Both the position numbers and the translations under genes were made by a program. Of a stretch of 18,664 nt of DNA, positions 5,297 through 14,737 are shown piece after piece. The DNA is from Bacillota bacterium. GTDB taxonomy: Bacteria > Bacillota > Clostridia > Acetivibrionales > DSM-1351. Numbering within the stretch: the first letter of the stretch is position 1; every line of letters begins with the position of its first letter. The DNA lies in contig JAEZIV010000290.1 of assembly GCA_023436515.1 (NCBI GenBank), positions 1-18,664 of the forward strand, given 5' to 3'. Under the pieces are notes generated by a model, which did not search any database, was not told the DNA's origin, and saw only the letters and a program-made list of their open reading frames with translations.

Positions 5297-5491
5297 CAGT
5301 AAGTGAGCCTTTCAATAAAAAGTATACAGGAGCTTAGGGCTGTAAATAACAGCAGGATTTGGCTTATGAGGACTTGCTGGTATATAACTTAAAAAAATAC
5401 ATAATCTTATTTATCCCCTAAAATATTATAGAAAATATCAAAAATTACATAATTATTTTGTTACAATTAATATGAGGTGAATTTTTACATA

Positions 5492-6874
5492 ATGAATTAT
5501 TACGAACGCGTTCAGAGAGCTATCGATTATATTGAAGAAAACCTGAGTTACGAAATAGAATTGCAAACTGTATCAAAGGAAGCCTATATGTCTATTGCCA
5601 GCTTGTATAGACTCTTTTTCTCCATGACCGGATTTTCGGTCAAGGAGTATATCCGGCGTAGAAGAATAAATGAAGCATCCCGATACCTTGTATATACTAA
5701 AAGAAGTATCTTTGATATTGCCTTTGACTTCTGTTTCGAAAGCCAAGAGGCCTTTACCAGGTCCTTCAAACAATTGACAGGTCTCACCCCCGGGGCTTTC
5801 AGAAAAAGTAAAGCCAAGTTTGAATTTGAAAGGGTGAACGTTGTGGAAAATTATTTGGAAATTCAGGATGCCGAGTTACTTGAAAAGTATCCCGACATAA
5901 AGGTTGTAAAGGAATTAAAGCCAGTTAGAGTGGCATATTACAGATACATTGGGAAGTGCCCCGAGGGAAAGGCCTGGAAGGTGCTTCTGGAATGGATAAG
6001 AAAGGCTGGCCTAGATCAAGAGGATTGCAAAATGAGAATATTCGGTTTTGACAACCCTCCTCCCCCTCCGAACTTTATTCCCGGGGAGACTGAGTACGGA
6101 TATGAGTTTATGGTTACTATTGATGAGGACCTGGTTGTAGATGACGAGAACGTTAAAACAAAGGTATTCGACGGTGGGAGATATGCGGTAATGAGCATTT
6201 CCAACGTTGATGGCTATGGCATCATGAATGGCTGGGAAAGGTTCAGAAAGTGGCTCTCGGCAAGCAAGTATCTTATAGGAACTCACCAATGGCTTGAGGA
6301 GCACCTTTCCTTTAATGATGAAAACAGTGAAAGCATGAAGATTGACCTCTATATGCCACTATCGGATCAGGACAAGTATGACTTTGAAAATAAAGTGGAT
6401 ATTTGTGAGGTTGAACCAGTTACCGTTGCCTACTATCGGGCAGTAGGAGATAAGCCCTGGGAGGAAGCCTGGAAGGTAATGCTGGAATGGGCTCGGGCCA
6501 AGGGCTTTTTCTCTCGGCAGGCAAGTCGGAGATTTATGAATTATAGTAGCATTCCTACTGCCTACCCTGGTGAACCTGGCTTTTGGTTTGAGGTATGCAT
6601 GGAGGTAGACGGGAATATTGGAATTGAGGATGAAAGGGTTAAGCTGAAAAAGTTCAAGGGTGGTCTATACGCCTGTGTGGACACAGATAAAAAAGGCGCG
6701 GACGCTGTTTGGCCGATGCTGGAAAAGTGGATGTTTGGTAATTCAAAATACACCTATTCCTCACAGCATCAATGGTTTCAGGAGCAGTGGCTGGATAAGC
6801 ACCAGTGCCCCGAAGTCCAGCCCGACACTCTCCCGGTAAAATGTTATGCTGCTGTAAAAAAGCTAAAGAGATAA
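5492..6874 (+). CDS. AraC-type regulator fused to two GyrI-like domains
   Basis: A 460-residue protein with an N-terminal double helix-turn-helix of the AraC family (about residues 5-104; SFKQLTGLTPGAFRK is the second helix pair) and two consecutive GyrI-like/SHV effector domains (about 138-292 and 304-458). The two copies align clearly: LKPVRVAYYRYIG...AWKVLLEWIRKAGL against VEPVTVAYYRAVG...AWKVMLEWARAKGF, and each ends in a HQWLEE/HQWFQE segment. GyrI-like domains bind diverse small, often aromatic or cationic compounds (BmrR, Rob, SbmC/GyrI families). I infer a ligand-responsive activator of the next three genes. ATG 5492 is preferred, with GAGGTGA at 5474-5480. The GTG at 5477 falls inside that ribosome site. 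A run of five prolines occurs at residues 189-193. It is separated from the UvrA-like gene by 66 nt containing a terminator-like hairpin. Confidence 0.88.
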   Translation: MNYYERVQRAIDYIEENLSYEIELQTVSKEAYMSIASLYRLFFSMTGFSVKEYIRRRRINEASRYLVYTKRSIFDIAFDFCFESQEAFTRSFKQLTGLTPGAFRKSKAKFEFERVNVVENYLEIQDAELLEKYPDIKVVKELKPVRVAYYRYIGKCPEGKAWKVLLEWIRKAGLDQEDCKMRIFGFDNPPPPPNFIPGETEYGYEFMVTIDEDLVVDDENVKTKVFDGGRYAVMSISNVDGYGIMNGWERFRKWLSASKYLIGTHQWLEEHLSFNDENSESMKIDLYMPLSDQDKYDFENKVDICEVEPVTVAYYRAVGDKPWEEAWKVMLEWARAKGFFSRQASRRFMNYSSIPTAYPGEPGFWFEVCMEVDGNIGIEDERVKLKKFKGGLYACVDTDKKGADAVWPMLEKWMFGNSKYTYSSQHQWFQEQWLDKHQCPEVQPDTLPVKCYAAVKKLKR

Positions 6875-6880
6875 TAAATA

Positions 6881-6923
6881 GACTCAAAGGGGTGAAGTTT
6901 AAAACTTCTCCTTTTTGGTGTCT
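6881..6923 (+). terminator. Terminator-like hairpin / possible attenuator
   Basis: GGTGAAGTTT (6891-6900) pairs with AAACTTCTCC (6902-6911, one mismatch), and a TTTTT run follows at 6912-6916. Outer bases GAC (6881-6883) and GTC (6919-6921) can extend the stem with bulges. The hairpin lies between the regulator stop and the UvrA-like ribosome site (6932-6936). It could end most regulator transcripts and meter readthrough into the three-gene block, because no strong promoter is visible after it. Confidence 0.55.
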
Positions 6924-6940
6924 TTATATAAAGAGGTAAT

Positions 6941-9391
6941 ATGAAAAGTATCAAAATTCAGAATGCTAAAATACATAATTTGAAGAACCTTGATGTAGAA
7001 ATACCACGGGATAGATGTACAGTAGTAACAGGTGTAAGCGGCTCCGGTAAATCAAGCCTGATATTCGATGTTTTGTACAAGAAAGCCAGGGATCTTTATC
7101 TGGATGCAATCGGAATACGTCAGCATCATTATTCGGACGCGGCTGACAGTATAAAGGGCTTGTGCCCTGTTGTAGCTGTAGAGCAAAATATTGCCAGAGC
7201 TACCTCCTCCCGCTCGGTGGTAGGAACCAGGACAAATATATTTGAATACCTCAGACAGCTTTATGCTTCGGCGGGAGAACGGGAGTGTGTCCAGTGCGGT
7301 TCTGCAATAACCGGATGCAATGTTTGCAGGGTTTGCGGGACCTCGCCCGAGCCCTTTCCAAAAGGCTACTTCTCCTTTAATACTATAAACGGCAAATGTC
7401 AGGTATGCGGTGGGCGTGGCTTTAACTGGGAGCCCTCTGAGGAAAAGCTCACAGCAAATTCCAATAAGCCTATAAAAAAGGCGTACTGGTTCTGGATGTT
7501 CAAGCCCTGCCTTCAAAAGTTCCACGTTATTGGACAGAGGTTTGATATATCCCTGGATATGAGTCTCGACCAACTGGAGGAGGAAAGTAGGAAGGCAGTA
7601 TTGCATGGGTGGGGGGATTTCCCGGGAATAATACCTTTTGCCGCTTCACAAATAGATTATCTTCTATATAAATGCCCTTCAGCGGGACCGGGTATGCTGG
7701 AACGCTACTATGAGCGCAGGGTATGCTGCAGCTGTAAAGGCATGAGGCTGGGAACGGGGCCCCTGTCGGTATTGTTAAAGGGAAAAAGCATGGGGGAATT
7801 GTCTCTGATGACATTAGAGGAGCTGGACCTTTTTTTATCTGAGCTAAAGACAGGCTACTCTTCAGACAGCTTCGAGTCGGGACTGATTAGTTCGATAAAA
7901 AGACAAATTGAAGGGTTCCGATGTGTTAACCTCTCTTATCTGAGCCTGTATAGGTCCATTCCAACTCTCAGCGGCGGAGAGATACAGCGTCTGTATATAA
8001 TGCGTCACATAACCTCAAGACTGGACTCCGCATTGTTTATTTTTGACGAGCCTACCGCCGGGCTTCATGAGATTGAGAAGGTAAAGCTGATTCAAAACAT
8101 AAAAGCCCTGGGGGCGGGCAGGAATGGGCTTATTATTGTAGAGCATGACAGAAATACAATTGAAATGGCCGACCATATTATTGATATTGGACCTCTGGCG
8201 GGAAGCTGCGGAGGAACGGTTGTATATAACGGGCCCGTTAAAGGCATATATCAATGTGAGGCTTCCTATACCGGAAAGTATCTTTCAGGACGGCTGAGTA
8301 TTCCGTCAAAGACGGCTGAGCAGTACCGCAAGGTTACCCCTGAAACCCCCAGGCTTAAGCTTCGGAATGCCCACGCAAATAATCTTCAAAAGGTTGATGT
8401 GGACATACCACTGGGTATAATATGCGGAATAGCCGGAGTTTCCGGCAGTGGTAAAAGCACTCTAGCTTCAAAGGTTTTAGTCCCTATGCTCCATAAATAC
8501 TTTAAGGAAATAGACGAGCTAGAGGTTGATACCGATGATGTTAGCGAGGATGGGGAGGGTATTTCTGAGCATGAGGATATAACAGCTTTGGACAAGGAGA
8601 CTTTATTAACGGGGATTGAAAACATCGCAGGCTTTGCTGATGAAGCCCAGATACCCATGAGCAGGTTTATCACTTCTACTCCTCTTTCCTATCTTGGGCT
8701 ATGGGATAGAGTACGAAAAATATATTCACTTCAGCCGGATGCCGTTAAAAAAGGGCTTACCATGTCCCATTTTTCTTTTAACTCCTCGAAGGGGGCCTGC
8801 CCTGAATGTAAGGGACGAGGTGTTAAAAGGATGAGCTTTAATTCACCAATATATTTTGAATGTGAGCTATGCCACGGAAAAAGATTTGATAATGAGGTCC
8901 TGGAAGTACGCTACAAAGGGTTGAATATTCATCAACTGCAAAGCCTCAGTATTTCTGAAGCTGTTTCCTTCTTTAAGGCTGACGAAACAATAAATGAAAT
9001 GCTTGTCATGCTGGACAGGACAGGCTTGGGTTATATGAAGCTTGGGCAGCCCATCCCTACCTTAAGCGGGGGAGAGGCCCAAAGGCTCAAGATAGCCAAG
9101 GAGCTTGGGAGAAGGCGGAGTGGAAGCATATTATATATTCTTGATGAGCCCACCACAGGTTTGAGCTTTCATGATACGGCAAATTTGCTTCCTTTATTGG
9201 AGGAGCTGGCACAAGCCGGGAATAGCGTTCTTGTTATAGAACACGATCCCGATGTACTCTCCTTTTGCGACTATATTATTGAAATGGGCCCGGGAGCAGG
9301 GGTGAAGGGCGGACAAATAATTGCTGAGGGCTCTCCCTGTGAACTCAAGAGTAATCCCCGGTCGCTTATTGGAAGGTACCTGAAAATATAA
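6941..9391 (+). CDS. UvrA-like ABC ATPase lacking the UvrB-binding domain (copy 1)
   Basis: An 816-residue soluble twin-ABC protein of the UvrA superfamily. Half 1: Walker A GVSGSGKSS 31-39, CxxC pairs at C116/C119 and C129/C132 and C153/C156, signature LSGGE 343-347, Walker B LFIFDEP 365-371, His402. Half 2: Walker A GVSGSGKST 499-507, zinc finger C620/C623...C641/C644, LSGGE 708-712, Walker B LYILDEP 731-737, His768. Housekeeping UvrA is about 940 residues. Here the chain passes from the first CxxC straight to the FSFN region (about 145), so the UvrB-binding domain has no space. That architecture is typical of UvrA2/DrrC-type proteins linked to DNA-binding drugs rather than nucleotide excision. 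An acidic insert follows the second Walker A (about 521-560). ATG 6941 has AGAGG 4 nt upstream. First of three genes with the hydrolase and copy 2. Confidence 0.9.
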   Translation: MKSIKIQNAKIHNLKNLDVEIPRDRCTVVTGVSGSGKSSLIFDVLYKKARDLYLDAIGIRQHHYSDAADSIKGLCPVVAVEQNIARATSSRSVVGTRTNIFEYLRQLYASAGERECVQCGSAITGCNVCRVCGTSPEPFPKGYFSFNTINGKCQVCGGRGFNWEPSEEKLTANSNKPIKKAYWFWMFKPCLQKFHVIGQRFDISLDMSLDQLEEESRKAVLHGWGDFPGIIPFAASQIDYLLYKCPSAGPGMLERYYERRVCCSCKGMRLGTGPLSVLLKGKSMGELSLMTLEELDLFLSELKTGYSSDSFESGLISSIKRQIEGFRCVNLSYLSLYRSIPTLSGGEIQRLYIMRHITSRLDSALFIFDEPTAGLHEIEKVKLIQNIKALGAGRNGLIIVEHDRNTIEMADHIIDIGPLAGSCGGTVVYNGPVKGIYQCEASYTGKYLSGRLSIPSKTAEQYRKVTPETPRLKLRNAHANNLQKVDVDIPLGIICGIAGVSGSGKSTLASKVLVPMLHKYFKEIDELEVDTDDVSEDGEGISEHEDITALDKETLLTGIENIAGFADEAQIPMSRFITSTPLSYLGLWDRVRKIYSLQPDAVKKGLTMSHFSFNSSKGACPECKGRGVKRMSFNSPIYFECELCHGKRFDNEVLEVRYKGLNIHQLQSLSISEAVSFFKADETINEMLVMLDRTGLGYMKLGQPIPTLSGGEAQRLKIAKELGRRRSGSILYILDEPTTGLSFHDTANLLPLLEELAQAGNSVLVIEHDPDVLSFCDYIIEMGPGAGVKGGQIIAEGSPCELKSNPRSLIGRYLKI

Positions 9392-9427
9392 GTCGGCTCA
9401 TAGAGGAGTCAGTCCGACTGCTGTCGG
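9391..9427 (+). promoter_or_regulatory. Mutually exclusive hairpins between UvrA-like copy 1 and the hydrolase
   Basis: AGTCGG (9391-9396, starting on the stop codon's last base) can pair with CCGACT (9414-9419). CCGAC (9414-9418) can instead pair with GTCGG (9423-9427) around a TGCT loop. The shared middle strand makes the two folds exclusive. No T-tract follows, so any effect would be on translation or transcript stability rather than termination. The rest of the 96-nt gap holds only the hydrolase ribosome site GGGAGG at 9477-9482. Confidence 0.4.
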
Positions 9428-9487
9428 TATAACCATGTATATTATTAGCACTTAGTCTGCATAGCAAGCAGTTGGTGGGAGGTCGAA

Positions 9488-10612
9488 ATGAAGGTATATT
9501 ACCCTGAAAAAGAATGGCTGCAGGTCAAGCCCGCAGAGGTGGGAGTAAACAAGGAAGCCGTATTGCACGCTGAAAAAGAGCTGAACATTAATAATAGCAT
9601 CATAGGAATGATGGTAGTTAAGGATGGATACATTGTTTTAGAGAAATACAACCCCCGTTACGATGAAAATACAGTCAGTCAGCTCTATTCTGTGACCAAG
9701 AGCTTCATATCGGCCCTTTTCGGTATAGCCTGCAGTATGGGAATGATTGAAAGTATTGATGATCCAGTATATAAATATTTTCCTGAGTACCAGCCCAAGG
9801 CCGACAGGTTTCTCCAGAAAACCGTTACACTGAGGCATCTGCTTACCATGACTGCCGGTTTATATGTATCTAAGAGACGTAGCTTCGGGTCAAGAATTGA
9901 GGATTCTAATGAGTGGGTCAGGAATATAATGGAGCTGCCAATCTCCCTTAAGACAGCAAATGAATTTCATTACAATGATCTGTATCCCCACCTGATATCG
10001 GCATTAATCACTAGACAGTCGGGAATTTCTACTATAGATTTTGCAAATAAGTATCTTTTTAGTAAGCTAAACATGAGCAAAATTGCACCTTTACAAACGA
10101 AGAATGCCCTGGATTATGCTCTGTTTAACAAAATAGCGGATGATACTATTCAAAAGGGCCGTTCCATCTGGCCCTGTGATCCCGAGGGAATTCCGGTGGG
10201 TGGATTTGGGCTGATGACTACCCTCAGGGACATGGCACGTTTCGGATACCTGTATCTCAGAGACGGAAAATGGGAAGATATTCAGGTTATCCCTGAAAAA
10301 TGGATAAGGGAATCTATTGGAGTATTTACCGGAACGGGGAAAAGAACTGCACTATCTGCAATAATGAATGAAAAGGATGCAGAGGAGTCCGGAGAAGATA
10401 AAGCCGTGGGGGTTGAGGGCTACGGATATTATTGGTGGATATCTGAAGGTAATATAGAGTACTATTGTGCCTTAGGCTACGGAGGTCAGAGGATAATTGT
10501 AATCCCCTCTCAAAATATGGTCATTGCAATAAAAACCACTTACAGCGGAATGAATGAATATATTCATGCTGACAGACTGTGGCAGAAAATAGTATTGGAT
10601 AGTCTGTCTTGA
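9488..10612 (+). CDS. Cytoplasmic serine hydrolase of the beta-lactamase/class C family
   Basis: A 374-residue penicillin-recognising-type serine hydrolase (Pfam beta-lactamase fold). The nucleophile motif SxxK is S68-V-T-K71, the second motif is Y162-N-D, and the third-motif position reads GYGGQ (331-335), a form seen in esterases, amidases and 6-aminohexanoate-dimer-type hydrolases rather than true beta-lactamases (KTG). There is no signal peptide or membrane segment, so it should act inside the cell, which argues against a classical periplasmic or secreted beta-lactamase role. ATG 9488 follows GGGAGG (9477-9482). Its stop at 10610-10612 is 11 nt before the second UvrA-like start, indicating tight co-translation. 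Given the setting between two UvrA-like ATPases, I infer that it hydrolyses an ester or amide of a small molecule handled by the same module. The substrate cannot be read from the sequence. Confidence 0.85.
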   Translation: MKVYYPEKEWLQVKPAEVGVNKEAVLHAEKELNINNSIIGMMVVKDGYIVLEKYNPRYDENTVSQLYSVTKSFISALFGIACSMGMIESIDDPVYKYFPEYQPKADRFLQKTVTLRHLLTMTAGLYVSKRRSFGSRIEDSNEWVRNIMELPISLKTANEFHYNDLYPHLISALITRQSGISTIDFANKYLFSKLNMSKIAPLQTKNALDYALFNKIADDTIQKGRSIWPCDPEGIPVGGFGLMTTLRDMARFGYLYLRDGKWEDIQVIPEKWIRESIGVFTGTGKRTALSAIMNEKDAEESGEDKAVGVEGYGYYWWISEGNIEYYCALGYGGQRIIVIPSQNMVIAIKTTYSGMNEYIHADRLWQKIVLDSLS

Positions 10613-10623
10613 TAGGAGAGAAA

Positions 10624-13212
10624 ATGATTACCATAAAATCAGCGAATTTACATAACCTTAAAAATGTTGACATAGAGATACCTGAAAACTCGTTTACTGT
10701 TGTTACCGGGGTAAGCGGATCGGGTAAATCAACAGCAATATTTGATATCCTGTATGAGGGCGGAAAGCAGGCCTATCTTGAGGCTATCGGGCTGGCACCG
10801 GTCATTGAAAGAGAGCGCAGCTATGAGAGTATTGAGGGCTTGAAACCTGCTATAGCCGTTACTCAGAAAACGGTTGCAGAAACCAACCCCCGATCTGTAG
10901 TCGGAACAAAGTCAGGTGTGCTTGATCTCTTAAGGGATGTTTACTCCTTTTGGGGGGAGGTGGCCTGCAGTAAATGCGGCTGCCCATGTGTTACAACTGA
11001 TAGGGGCATCGAGGCTTCAACCGCGGATACAGTCCAGCAAAAAGCTAGTAACAAGCTTGTGTGCCCCACCTGTGGCAGTATTGAAAAGAGACCGGGCCCT
11101 TTTTCCTTTTCCTTCAACTCGGTGCATGGAATGTGCCTGCACTGTACGGGACGGGGATATATGGACGAAATCAGCATTGATAAAATCATAGGTGACGGTG
11201 ATACCTCCCTTTCGGGTATTTGTCGTAAGGTTGGAGTGAATTTAAATAAGGAGAGGTTTGAAGGCTTCCTTTCTAGTTTTGGTTTGACCGGTAGAAGTCT
11301 TTTTTCAGAGCTTCCGGAAGAGGCTCAAGAAATTTTTTTATCAGGGAGGCCGGGAGTAATGAAGGGTCTGCTGTCTTATCTTGCGGGCAGACCCATATAT
11401 GACAGACTGCAATATACCAGGATGTATAAATGTACTGAATGCAATGGTGAACGAATTCGTCCTGAGGCTGTGAGAGTCACTATTGAAGGCAAAACCATAA
11501 GTCAGCTTTCCAATATGACCATAAAGGAAATGAGAGATATCCTTGAACGTTGGGTGGCAAAAAAGGAAGTGCACGGGGTGCAAGGGAGTGCTGCTGAGGC
11601 CCACAGTGATAACAAGTTTCCCGAAGGGATGGACAGGGAGACTCAAAGGATAAGAACAGAAGCGGCATGTGAAGGGCGGAGTGTTATACCTTCCGTAAGA
11701 AATGCAAGCTCGGTAAACCTTAATACAGCTAAGGTAATCCTGCGCCGGTTAAAGCAGTTTGAAGAGGCCGGCCTTTCACATCTGAGCCTTTACAGGCCAA
11801 TGCCCACCTTAAGCGGGGGCGAGGCTCAGCGATTATTTCTTGCCTCACACATTGAAAGTGAAATGGGCTCTGTAATATATATATTTGATGAGCCCACCAG
11901 CGGCCTCCATGAGTCGGAAAAAAAGGCTTTGATAAACAAGCTCCTGGCTCTGAGAGATAACGACAATACTGTAATAGCAATTGAACACGATAAAGGCACC
12001 ATAGCGTTGGCCGAGCATGTTATTGACTTTGGACCCCTGGGAGGGGAAAAGGGCGGAGAAGTAGTGGCAAAGGGCTCTGTAAAAGCGCTGATGGATAGCG
12101 ACAGATCAGTTACAGGAGCTTCCTTAAAGGGCACAAGGGCTATTCCAGTGAGAGGAAGGCGTAACCTGCCTGAAGTAGGAGCGGAATCGGGTCAAATATT
12201 GCGGCTGTGTGGCGTCAGGACACATAATCTGAAGAACCTTGAGGTAGAAATTCCTTTGGGTATGATTGTGGGTATAGCCGGACTGTCGGGGAGTGGAAAA
12301 AGCTCACTTATTGGGGACACACTTATTCCGGCACTTTATGATAGGTTTGGAAATTTTTCATCGGAAACCGAAAATTTAGAGGAAGAGCAGCCTGAGGAGG
12401 CAGCATTCTCGGAGGCTGTTTATAGTAGCATCAATGGGCTTGAATATTTATCGGGCTTTTGTGAGGTATACCAAAAGCCCATAGGAAGAAACAGACGCTC
12501 AATACCTTTGACCTATGCAGGTATATGGGATGACATCAGAGCTCTGTTTGCCCGACAGCCCGAGGCTAAGAAAAGCGGACTGAAGGCTGGACATTTCTCT
12601 TTTAACTCGATAGGTGCCTGCAGGGGCTGCCGTGGCATGGGCAGCATTGACAGATATATGGGTGAGTTGGGCTATGTTTCGGTTGGCTGCCCCGATTGTG
12701 AAGGGGACAGGTACTCCGACGAGGTCCTGCAGGTGAGATATAGAGGAAGAACAATAAAGGATGTATTAAATATGAGTATCGAAGCTGCTGCCGAACTGTT
12801 TTCCGAGGAGCCAAAGATAGCTTATATGCTCAGGACTCTTGTCAGAACAGGTCTGAGCTATCTCCGATGTGGACAGACGGTGTCCACCCTGAGCGGAGGT
12901 GAGGCTCAGCGTATAAAGCTGGCCGAGGAGCTGGGAAAGCAGAGAAAGGGTAATATACTCTATATATTGGATGAGCCAACAGCCGGCTTGTCCTTTCATG
13001 ACACTGCCATGCTATTGGGTATGCTGGAGGACTTATGCAGCAACGGGAACAGTATTATAATTATCGAGCATGACCTTGATGTGCTTAAGTTCTGCGACTA
13101 CATAATTGAGTTGGGTCCCGGCGGAGGAGATAACGGGGGCAGAGTTATAGCCGCAGGTTCTCCGGAGGACCTAAAGCAGCACTCTCATTCAATAATCGGA
13201 CAATACTTTTGA
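10624..13212 (+). CDS. UvrA-like ABC ATPase lacking the UvrB-binding domain (copy 2)
   Basis: An 862-residue diverged paralogue of the gene at 6941. Half 1: Walker A GVSGSGKST 29-37, CxxC pairs at C115/C118, C147/C150 and C171/C174, LSGGE 396-400, Walker B IYIFDEP 418-424, His455. Half 2: Walker A GLSGSGKSS 553-561, zinc finger C666/C669...C689/C692, LSGGE 756-760, Walker B LYILDEP 779-785, His816. Here too the UvrB-binding domain is absent. Two features differ from copy 1: a hydrophilic insert at about 312-365 before the first signature motif, and a shorter acidic insert at about 578-598. ATG 10624 is chosen: AGGAGAG (10614-10620) precedes it, and the N-terminus then lines up with copy 1. 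A TTG at 10609 overlapping the hydrolase stop is possible but would add five residues not shared by the paralogue. Last gene of the block. Confidence 0.9.
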   Translation: MITIKSANLHNLKNVDIEIPENSFTVVTGVSGSGKSTAIFDILYEGGKQAYLEAIGLAPVIERERSYESIEGLKPAIAVTQKTVAETNPRSVVGTKSGVLDLLRDVYSFWGEVACSKCGCPCVTTDRGIEASTADTVQQKASNKLVCPTCGSIEKRPGPFSFSFNSVHGMCLHCTGRGYMDEISIDKIIGDGDTSLSGICRKVGVNLNKERFEGFLSSFGLTGRSLFSELPEEAQEIFLSGRPGVMKGLLSYLAGRPIYDRLQYTRMYKCTECNGERIRPEAVRVTIEGKTISQLSNMTIKEMRDILERWVAKKEVHGVQGSAAEAHSDNKFPEGMDRETQRIRTEAACEGRSVIPSVRNASSVNLNTAKVILRRLKQFEEAGLSHLSLYRPMPTLSGGEAQRLFLASHIESEMGSVIYIFDEPTSGLHESEKKALINKLLALRDNDNTVIAIEHDKGTIALAEHVIDFGPLGGEKGGEVVAKGSVKALMDSDRSVTGASLKGTRAIPVRGRRNLPEVGAESGQILRLCGVRTHNLKNLEVEIPLGMIVGIAGLSGSGKSSLIGDTLIPALYDRFGNFSSETENLEEEQPEEAAFSEAVYSSINGLEYLSGFCEVYQKPIGRNRRSIPLTYAGIWDDIRALFARQPEAKKSGLKAGHFSFNSIGACRGCRGMGSIDRYMGELGYVSVGCPDCEGDRYSDEVLQVRYRGRTIKDVLNMSIEAAAELFSEEPKIAYMLRTLVRTGLSYLRCGQTVSTLSGGEAQRIKLAEELGKQRKGNILYILDEPTAGLSFHDTAMLLGMLEDLCSNGNSIIIIEHDLDVLKFCDYIIELGPGGGDNGGRVIAAGSPEDLKQHSHSIIGQYF

Positions 13213-13231: not shown

Positions 13232-13257
13232 GTGACGAATATAGCTTAATATGTCAC
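13232..13257. terminator. Weak hairpin between convergent genes
   Basis: GTGAC (13232-13236) pairs with GTCAC (13253-13257), with an inner ATAT/ATAT pairing and a 2-nt bulge. No T-run follows directly on either strand. It occupies the 41-nt gap between convergent UvrA-like copy 2 and the AraC gene and overlaps the latter's stop. It may end transcription inefficiently. Confidence 0.3.
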
Positions 13258-14054
13258 GTCAGGTTTTTATACCTTGAGGGCGGCACACCAAATTTCTTCT
13301 TAAACATCTTTGAGAAGTTGTATATGTCCTCATAGCCTGTACTTCTTGCCGCCTCGCTTACAGAATAACCATGCTTGGCAAGGAGTGTGGCTGCCTTTTC
13401 CAACCGGAAATTGACAAGGAAATTTTGAGGGGTATCGCCGGTGTTTTTACAGAACACTCTACATAGATATCTTCTGTCGATGCCAAGCATGGCGGCTATG
13501 CTCTCGACAGATATTTGATTTGCATAATTAGCTTGAATGTAATCCTTTGCTCTTTTGGAATATAAGCTTCCGCTGCTCATTTTACTGGAGGGTCGGAATT
13601 CTTCATGAAGTATTGAAAACATCTCCAATATCTTACTGGCTAGAAATAGTTCTGTAGAGTGAGGAAGGTCTGCTGCCTCCTTCATACTTAGAAAAGTATT
13701 TCTCAAGGAGGGAACTGACAAGGTGCATTTATCTTCTGAGAGGCCGCTGCTCTCTAAAAGCTCCTGTACCACCTCGCCATTAAAGCCTATCCAGATATAT
13801 TCCCAGGGCTCCTTTGAATCGGCCTTGTAGAAGGTTAATTCGTAGGGTCGGATAAGAAATATTGAGCCTTTGGAGAGGGTGTAGATAACACCCTTCCTTT
13901 CAAAGGTGCCGCAGCCGGAAATCACATAGTGTATAAGGTAATACTCTCTTGAAGCAGGGCCAAAGGAATGCCCGGGGTCACAATTCTCCCAGCCAAAGAT
14001 GAGAGGGTTTATATCATTATAAGCTTTGTTTAAGAGTGGAATGTTATGAGTCAA
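13254..14054 (-). CDS. AraC-family regulator with N-terminal cupin sensor
   Basis: A 266-residue transcription factor. The N-terminal half (about 1-140) has the AraC-binding/cupin pattern (HYVISGCGTFERKG near 42-55, GSIFLIRPYELTFY near 62-75), and the C-terminal half (about 165-262) carries the two helix-turn-helices ending in the family signature YNFSKMFKKKFGVPPSRYK. Such proteins usually sense sugars. The TTG start at 14054 is supported by GGAGG on the minus strand five nt upstream, and no ATG or GTG suits. It follows the nitroreductase gene by 44 nt on the same strand, so both are probably co-transcribed. The divergent GH4 alpha-galactosidase is the natural target: its promoter has a poor -35 and a palindrome, as is usual for activated genes. 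That regulatory link is inference. Confidence 0.88.
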   Translation of the reverse strand: MTHNIPLLNKAYNDINPLIFGWENCDPGHSFGPASREYYLIHYVISGCGTFERKGVIYTLSKGSIFLIRPYELTFYKADSKEPWEYIWIGFNGEVVQELLESSGLSEDKCTLSVPSLRNTFLSMKEAADLPHSTELFLASKILEMFSILHEEFRPSSKMSSGSLYSKRAKDYIQANYANQISVESIAAMLGIDRRYLCRVFCKNTGDTPQNFLVNFRLEKAATLLAKHGYSVSEAARSTGYEDIYNFSKMFKKKFGVPPSRYKNLT

Positions 14055-14098
14055 AATGGCCTCCGTTAAAAACTATTTCCAAGAGAGTATTTCAGGGG

Positions 14099-14737
14099 TT
14101 AAATGAATCTCAAGATAGATGCTTGCTCCTTAAGCTTTTTATCCTTTGGAGTATATACAGGCTCACCAACCGGGATAACGCTTATAAGCCTGAGGTCCTC
14201 TCTTACTCCGAGAAGCTCCTTTATAGTGTCCTCTGCTACAACAGGGTCATTCATCCAACAGGCGCCGTAACCCTGTTCGGTAATGGCAAGCAGCATGTTC
14301 TGGATTGCAGCACCTATAGACAGTACATCGTAGTAGCCAAGCTTATCCAGCATGGAGCGGTAATCATAGCCCTTTTCATAAAAAGCCTCAACAGCCTGAG
14401 CATCATAGTGTTTTGACTTGTCCATAAATACAAAAATAACTAATGGAGCATTTCTGAAAAAGCTTACGGTATTTTTCCGTACTGTCAGAAATTCTTCTGT
14501 AGCTTTCGAATAGGTGCCATAGAATTCCACAGAACTCTTGCCGGTTTCATCAGCCAGTTTAGATATCATATCCTTGTCATCAACAGCAACGAAGTACCAG
14601 CCCTGGCTGTCACAGCCGCTGGGTGCATGGGTGGCACAGGTAATGAAATATTCTGCAAGCTCCCTGGGAACAGGTTTGTCTGTAAACTTGCGAATGCTTC
14701 TTCTCTTTTTAGCTAAATCCAAGAAATTATTCTGCAT
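14099..14737 (-). CDS. Nitroreductase-family FMN oxidoreductase
   Basis: A 212-residue flavoprotein that would reduce nitroaromatics, quinones or related electrophiles with NAD(P)H. Family marks are the N-terminal RRSIRKF phosphate-contact segment (12-18), APSGCDSQGW (about 38-47), the central SIGAAIQNMLLAITEQGYGACW stretch and the PVGEP segment near the end. ATG 14737 is preceded by GGAGG on the minus strand (14748-14744), 6 nt away. A strong minus-strand promoter lies at 14801-14830, overlaid by a repeated GTTACAT motif, which suggests repression relieved by an electrophile or redox signal. The physiological substrate is unknown. It is first in a two-gene unit with the AraC regulator. Confidence 0.9.
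   Translation of the reverse strand: MQNNFLDLAKKRRSIRKFTDKPVPRELAEYFITCATHAPSGCDSQGWYFVAVDDKDMISKLADETGKSSVEFYGTYSKATEEFLTVRKNTVSFFRNAPLVIFVFMDKSKHYDAQAVEAFYEKGYDYRSMLDKLGYYDVLSIGAAIQNMLLAITEQGYGACWMNDPVVAEDTIKELLGVREDLRLISVIPVGEPVYTPKDKKLKEQASILRFI

What the first reader, a model, noticed from the sequence alone, without database searches (positions are those of the whole stretch)
5492..13212. Candidate drug-defence module: AraC-GyrI2 / UvrA-like / serine hydrolase / UvrA-like
Four plus-strand genes combine a sensor with two small-molecule-binding GyrI-like domains, two UvrA-like ATPases of the type known from resistance to DNA-binding drugs (DrrC for daunorubicin, Ecm16 for echinomycin), and an intracellular SxxK hydrolase between them. 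No biosynthetic genes are in the window, so it would be defence or detoxification rather than self-resistance. I know of no described system with this combination. The functional link is inferred from order, spacing and domain types.
Basis: partly seen in the sequence, partly recalled or inferred. Interest (0 to 1): 0.75.

Follow-up and report, generated by a model that had tools for sequence, protein, structure and literature searches.

The report
Twin UvrA-like cassette with hydrolase
A bacterium, probably a clostridium, carries a drug-sensor-type regulator, two different UvrA-like DNA-binding-type ATPases and an intracellular ester/amide-type hydrolase in one short gene row; it is probably a small unit that protects DNA from DNA-binding compounds, a plausible new arrangement of known part types rather than a new kind of system.

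Summary
The four genes are real, intact and in the stated order. Both UvrA-like proteins lack the UvrB-binding domain, so they are not repair UvrA; they sit in a broad UvrA-like clade with C. difficile proteins. Unlike Ecm16 and UvrA2 they keep the zinc-module-1 cysteines. They are not a recent duplication: cores are 45-47% identical, insertion domains 19%, and in Ecm16 that domain decides drug recognition (PMC10192343). The hydrolase is a PF00144 enzyme without a signal-like N-terminus, nearest in fold to esterases and amide hydrolases. It ends 11 bases before the second UvrA-like gene; a terminator-like hairpin separates the regulator from the rest. Orthologues of UvrA-A, hydrolase and UvrA-B show parallel identity ladders (79-90%, 58-67%, then 46% or less); contig lengths place hydrolase with a UvrA-like gene in two relatives. 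So a UvrA-hydrolase-UvrA unit probably exists, in a narrow group. Gene order was not seen in any other genome; regulator linkage and drug function are untested. Most likely: inducible removal and cleavage of a DNA-binding compound.

The parts
5492..6874 (+). Regulator: N-terminal AraC-type HTH followed by two GyrI-like (Cass2) domains; possible longer GTG start at 5477
   Evidence: Pfam PF12833, and PF14526 and PF06445 with two stretches each; best PDB match 7R3W, E 6e-21 over residues 7-295, which is STM3175 (PMC10414762)
6880..6922 (+). Terminator-like hairpin between regulator and first UvrA-like gene (possible attenuator or operator dyad)
   Evidence: RNA fold -17.7 kcal/mol, z -4.4, 0 of 200 shuffles as good; rear arm CTCCTTTTT; not listed by the consensus terminator scan
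6941..9391 (+). UvrA-like ATPase A, 816 aa, no UvrB-binding domain; zinc module 1 reduced to C116/C119 and C129/C132 with 9 residues between; 105-aa insertion domain
   Evidence: Pfam/NCBIfam, motifs, tree and cysteine map
9488..10612 (+). PF00144 serine hydrolase, 374 aa, SVTK 68-71, Tyr162, GYGGQ 330; no signal-like N-terminus
   Evidence: Pfam E 1e-27; motifs and hydropathy; S68, K71, Y162 invariant in 56 of 56 aligned sequences; model pLDDT 89.3; fold matches
10624..13212 (+). UvrA-like ATPase B, 862 aa, no UvrB-binding domain; zinc module 1 with 28-aa loop; 95-aa insertion domain; starts 11 nt after the hydrolase stop
   Evidence: Pfam/NCBIfam, start site, motifs, tree and cysteine map

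Best explanation
An inducible DNA-protection cassette. Shown: a regulator with AraC-type HTH and two GyrI-like domains (a small-molecule-binding type); two divergent UvrB-domain-less UvrA-like ATPases with intact ATPase motifs and zinc cysteines; a PF00144 hydrolase without export signal, tightly spaced to the second. Inferred: the regulator binds a DNA-targeting compound and switches on the genes behind it; A and B bind drug-loaded DNA through their different insertion domains and use ATP to dislodge the compound without UvrB/UvrC, as is proposed for Ecm16; the hydrolase then cleaves an ester or amide bond of the freed compound. The likely source is a competitor's or environmental compound, since no biosynthetic gene is nearby.
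For: No UvrB-binding domain in A or B; complete Walker/signature/zinc motifs. Insertion domains conserved within each orthologue set (A 55-80%, B 69-94%) but 19% between A and B, against 45-47% in the cores; in Ecm16 this domain is needed for DNA binding and its sequence sets the drug response (PMC10192343: introduction, first part of Results, Discussion). The regulator's best solved relative by sequence is STM3175 (7R3W), whose GyrI-like domain traps albicidin (PMC10414762: abstract and one section). Hydrolase lacks a signal-like stretch and folds most like esterases and 6-aminohexanoate-dimer hydrolase. Linkage: 11-nt gap to B; parallel identity ladders; shared contigs of 49,265 and 86,089 bases; chimera P0003.
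Confidence: 0.45

Rival explanations
1. A general DNA-damage tolerance cassette: the UvrA-like proteins recognise endogenous or oxidative lesions or assist repair, and the hydrolase serves metabolism of a stress metabolite; no specific drug is involved.
For: UvrA2 proteins are linked to tolerance of DNA-damaging agents, with unclear role (PMC5128194, passages); a UvrA paralogue in a three-gene operon of Porphyromonas gingivalis is reported to matter under peroxide stress (PMC3747172, passages). The clade of A and B is broad (94 of 124 tips), as a general stress function would predict.
Against: GyrI-like regulator and hydrolase point to a small molecule; insertion domains of A and B differ strongly.
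Confidence: 0.25
2. Only partly a unit: hydrolase and B (perhaps A) are co-transcribed, while the regulator is a separate gene that happens to lie upstream, and the hydrolase acts in unrelated metabolism.
For: Hairpin between regulator and A; a regulator of the same layout on a Paenibacillus plasmid shows no UvrA gene among the ORFs read nearby; hydrolases of this fold have varied substrates.
Against: Same strand, 66-nt gap; parallel identity ladders and shared contigs for A, hydrolase and B; 11-nt gap between hydrolase and B.
Confidence: 0.2
3. Self-resistance for a natural product made by genes elsewhere in the genome, or a relic of a lost biosynthetic cluster.
For: Known UvrA-like resistance genes sit in producers' clusters (PMC10192343 Table 1; PMC10413001 section 3.1).
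Against: No biosynthetic gene among the other nine genes of the window; the wider clade includes organisms not known to me as producers (recall).
Confidence: 0.1

Closest known systems
Ecm16 / DrrC (UvrA-like self-resistance ATPases of Streptomyces)
   Same: Two ABC ATPase modules, no UvrB-binding domain, insertion domain and zinc modules 2 and 3 kept; Ecm16 structure 7SH1 matched by sequence (A E 2.5e-112, B E 1.3e-108)
   Different: Zinc-module-1 cysteines kept; no biosynthetic gene in the window; two divergent copies with a hydrolase between; drug function untested
Deinococcus UvrA2 (class II UvrA)
   Same: UvrB-binding domain missing; similar length (842 aa)
   Different: UvrA2 lacks zinc module 1 and falls outside the 94-tip clade of A and B; core identity 34-42%, insertion domain 15-17%
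C. difficile UvrA-like protein P0021 and the wider group at about 45% identity
   Same: Same 94-tip clade, same short zinc module 1 (9-aa gap), no UvrB-binding domain; a near relative carries the source name 'UvrA protein 2' (P0039)
   Different: About 45% identity; insertion domain 22-23% to A and B; gene neighbourhood not seen
STM3175 (YgiV), albicidin-trapping AraC/GyrI-like regulator
   Same: AraC-type HTH followed by a GyrI-like domain; best PDB match
   Different: Window protein has a second GyrI-like domain and sits before UvrA-like genes; albicidin binding untested
PF00144 esterases/amide hydrolases (Lsa45, PIB-1, 6-aminohexanoate-dimer hydrolase, family VIII esterases)
   Different: Own small orthologue group (58-90%), then 39% or less; substrate unknown

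Membership tests
Canonical NER UvrA | UvrB-binding domain inside zinc module 1 | tested here: not met
   Gap of 9 aa in A and 28 in B against 122 and 126 in two canonical UvrA proteins; 21 of 21 canonical tips have a segment of at least 100 aa there, 0 of 103 others do
UvrA-like class II (UvrB-independent) | UvrB-binding domain absent with both ATPase modules intact | tested here: met
UvrA-like class IIa (CosU, DrrC; Ecm16 has the same two losses) | Loss of the first zinc-finger motif as well as the UvrB-binding domain | tested here: not met
   Four zinc-1 cysteines present in A and B, in the A orthologues P0002, P0004 and P0005 and in all five aligned B sequences; absent in DrUvrA2, L046, L047. 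Class definition from passages of PMC9241694; Ecm16 from PMC10192343
UvrA-like class IIa (CosU, DrrC; Ecm16 has the same two losses) | Confers resistance to a DNA-binding drug | not testable with these tools
   Needs strains and drugs
AraC/GyrI-like regulators (Rob, STM3175) | AraC-type HTH plus GyrI-like domain | tested here: met
   Pfam above cut-offs; 7R3W E 6e-21
GyrI-like cyclopropanoid hydrolases (CCH) | Paired catalytic Glu and aromatic cage | tested here: inconclusive
   No solved CCH was returned for either domain; regulator model unusable, pLDDT 35.9. Features from PMC5684135 section 7
PF00144 serine hydrolases | SxxK nucleophile motif plus conserved Tyr | tested here: met
   S68, K71 and Y162 invariant in 56 of 56 aligned sequences
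Class C beta-lactamase | Score above the curated class C model | tested here: not met
MADS anti-phage system | Full set of mad genes | tested here: inconclusive
   A and B match the mad3 and mad8 models (mad3 E 5.9e-60 and 4.6e-70); regulator and hydrolase match no PADLOC model; the other nine genes were not scanned

The most novel reading that the evidence does not exclude
A two-reader 'extract and destroy' resistance unit: two divergent UvrA-like proteins with different insertion domains, possibly a heterodimer, recognise one class of drug-loaded DNA, eject the drug with ATP, and hand it to a co-expressed cytoplasmic hydrolase that opens an ester or amide bond; a regulator with two drug pockets turns it on. 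No such coupling of a UvrA-like ejector with a drug-cleaving enzyme showed in the listings of my ten paper searches.
Probability: 0.2. Interest if true: 0.7.

Novelty: new variant of a known kind. Interest (0 to 1): 0.42.

Why it matters
UvrA-like ejector proteins are described mainly from actinomycete producers. A regulated cassette in clostridia would suggest that the same mechanism serves defence outside producers, and the linked hydrolase and sensor give direct handles for finding the compound. It also puts a testable question to a large UvrA-like clade that includes C. difficile proteins: what does it protect DNA from, and why did it keep zinc module 1 after losing the UvrB-binding domain?

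Tried and rejected
Genome context: no genome is held for the window. The single genome-contig scan used exact patterns from one sequence and returned one archaeal locus, L001, whose UvrA is canonical in length (940 aa). The genome search reached that one archaeal genome (Cass2 family in 0 of 1 genome; 7 of 14 control genomes positive); I had no genome handle from the window's likely phylum, and a plasmid locus is not accepted as centre. Four of eight viral-contig scans: two with UvrA alignments gave 42 and 12 loci with best-segment identities of 27-56% (short segments at the top; the loci were not examined one by one); none encoded the hydrolase or matched the regulator. Plasmid and phage collections gave only distant UvrA relatives, no DNA match to the block in plasmids, hydrolases of 29% identity or less among those listed (20 of 199; some 30% over shorter stretches), and one regulator relative covering at least 80% (15 records in all). 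One search returned no match at 1e-120, although with a looser limit lists a few at 1e-120 to 1e-122; I did not resolve this.

Hydrolase as class C beta-lactamase: rejected. A and B as a recent tandem duplication: rejected, since A groups with six other tips (support 0.958) and B with twelve others (0.946); the deeper nodes joining these groups are weak, 0.43-0.46. Regulator structure from one sequence failed, mean pLDDT 35.9, not used. Rfam: no match in the window at gathering scores. The promoter and terminator scans exceed shuffles only moderately (29 against 17.9 +/- 4.9; 11 against 8.6 +/- 2.9) and were not used. Contig 56,770 (UvrA-like P0010 46%, hydrolase-like P0254 36%) is reported but not counted as support for the unit: both families are large and one shared 57-kb contig may be chance.
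Full report
The window has 13 evident genes. The block of interest is an AraC-type regulator with two GyrI-like stretches, UvrA-like A (816 aa), a PF00144 hydrolase (374 aa) and UvrA-like B (862 aa from its likely ATG start at 10624). The nine flanking genes are sugar metabolism, a DUF5698/DUF2179 protein, a second AraC regulator, a nitroreductase, a dehydrogenase and a methyltransferase; I see no natural-product biosynthesis gene among them. No whole genome is held, so a cluster elsewhere is not excluded, and the host is not identified; 'clostridial' rests on the names given to two orthologues (P0124, P0236).

Transcription. The hydrolase stop and B's ATG are 11 nt apart, with TAGGAG between them. 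A and the hydrolase are 96 nt apart; the fold of that gap is no better than shuffles (z -0.3). Between regulator and A (66 nt) lies a strong hairpin with a U-rich rear arm (-17.7 kcal/mol, z -4.4, 0 of 200 shuffles as good), which the consensus scan did not list. It may be a terminator of the regulator transcript, an attenuator before A, or an operator dyad. So A-hydrolase-B is the likelier transcription unit and the regulator a neighbour that may control it (inference).

What A and B are. By sequence both match UvrA of known structure first (3PIH, 2R6F) and also UvrA2 (2VF7) and Ecm16 (7SH1). Of 233 proteins from the two UvrA searches (P0001-P0233), 192 of 770-1000 aa were taken (P0001, identical to A, left out); a k-mer redundancy filter left 118, and with six other sequences 124 went into the tree. 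A and B sit in a clade of 94 tips (support 0.997) that excludes the 21 canonical UvrA tips, Deinococcus UvrA2, a Streptomyces and a Cytobacillus plasmid UvrA and six others. A groups with P0179, P0028, P0018 and its orthologues (7 tips, 0.958); B with P0166, P0011, P0144 and others (13 tips, 0.946); the node joining these groups has support 0.43. All 103 non-canonical tips lack the UvrB-binding domain; 75 of 103 keep two CxxC/H pairs of zinc module 1 and 28 of 103 do not (with this pattern 4 of 21 canonical tips also show fewer than two pairs). This separates A and B from Ecm16 and from class IIa, defined by loss of both (PMC10192343; PMC9241694 passages). The published division of UvrA homologues cited there (Marszalkowska 2013) was seen only as a reference, so I cannot say whether this subtype is already named.

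A and B are not redundant copies. Their cores are 45-47% identical, but their insertion domains only 19%. Within orthologues the insertion domain is conserved: A against P0002/P0004/P0005 80/55/55% (cores 67-88%); B against P0121/P0122/P0123/P0124 94/83/69/73% (cores 67-89%). Ecm16 without this domain does not bind DNA, and with DrrC's domain it loses the strong drug-stimulated ATPase. So A and B probably read different features, or two sides of one target (inference).

The regulator's best solved relative is 7R3W (E 6e-21), which is STM3175, an AraC-type regulator whose GyrI-like domain traps albicidin (PMC10414762, abstract and structure section). The window protein adds a second GyrI-like domain. 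Domain 1 alone matched only 7R3W (E 0.0009) and domain 2 alone matched no PDB sequence; its model failed (pLDDT 35.9), so pocket residues were not judged. The paper on GyrI-like hydrolases (PMC5684135, passages and one section) shows that such domains can also be enzymes; this was not resolved here.

Is it a unit? The three protein searches give parallel ladders (alignment identities): A 82, 67, 66, then 46% or less; B 88, 82, 67, 67, then 43% or less; hydrolase 90, 79, 59, 59, 58, then 39% or less. The chimera P0003 (56% to A, 62% to B) is left out of both ladders. Contig lengths act as fingerprints: P0002 (A type) and P0235 (hydrolase) share 49,265; P0121 (B type) and P0234 (hydrolase) share 86,089; P0010 (UvrA-like, 46%) and P0254 (hydrolase-like, 36%) share 56,770. 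Among lengths above 20 kb this is 3 coincidences against a mean of 0.024 when lengths are shifted by 1-500 bases. P0003's first part is 73% identical to P0005 (A type) and its second part 83% to P0124 (B type), as expected if A and B lie in tandem in that lineage and were fused by deletion or by assembly. Against this: I did not see gene order on any other contig, no listed contig shows all three genes, only the 120 best rows of each list were compared, and the longest contig of a cluster can hide others. The unit thus looks old enough to span about 60% identity but taxonomically narrow.

Most likely mechanism: ligand-bound regulator switches on A-hydrolase-B; A and B recognise drug-loaded DNA and eject the drug with ATP without UvrB; the hydrolase inactivates it. 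Each functional step is inferred from relatives; none was tested. I rate this 0.45, general damage tolerance 0.25, partial linkage 0.2, self-resistance 0.1.

Verdict: a good observation. The cassette is a new variant of a known kind, not a categorically new system.

Noticed in passing
UvrA tree and count: A large UvrA-like clade, including C. difficile proteins, lacks the UvrB-binding domain; 75 of the 103 non-canonical tips examined keep two CxxC/H pairs of zinc module 1 around a shrunken loop (9 aa in most of those printed). I found no assigned function for it in my paper searches.
   Followed up: partly
P0003 (1188 aa): Protein joining most of an A-type UvrA-like protein to the rear part of a B-type one; listed with three contigs, so either a real deletion fusion or a repeated assembly error.
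   Followed up: partly
window 6880-6922: Strong hairpin with U-rich rear arm between regulator and first UvrA-like gene, suggesting attenuation.
   Followed up: partly
window 13254-14737 (-): Second AraC-family regulator and a nitroreductase-family gene, opposite strand, directly after the block; nitroreductases can act on nitro-drugs (recall), but no link was tested.
   Followed up: no
window 6941-9391 and 10624-13212: Both UvrA-like proteins match the PADLOC mad3 model of the MADS anti-phage system (E 5.9e-60, 4.6e-70), hinting that mad3 is UvrA-related.
   Followed up: no
window 7484-7501 (A residues 182-187): The insertion domain of A is rich in aromatic residues (16 of 105), with a YWFWMF run, which might contact planar ligands; speculative.
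   Followed up: no
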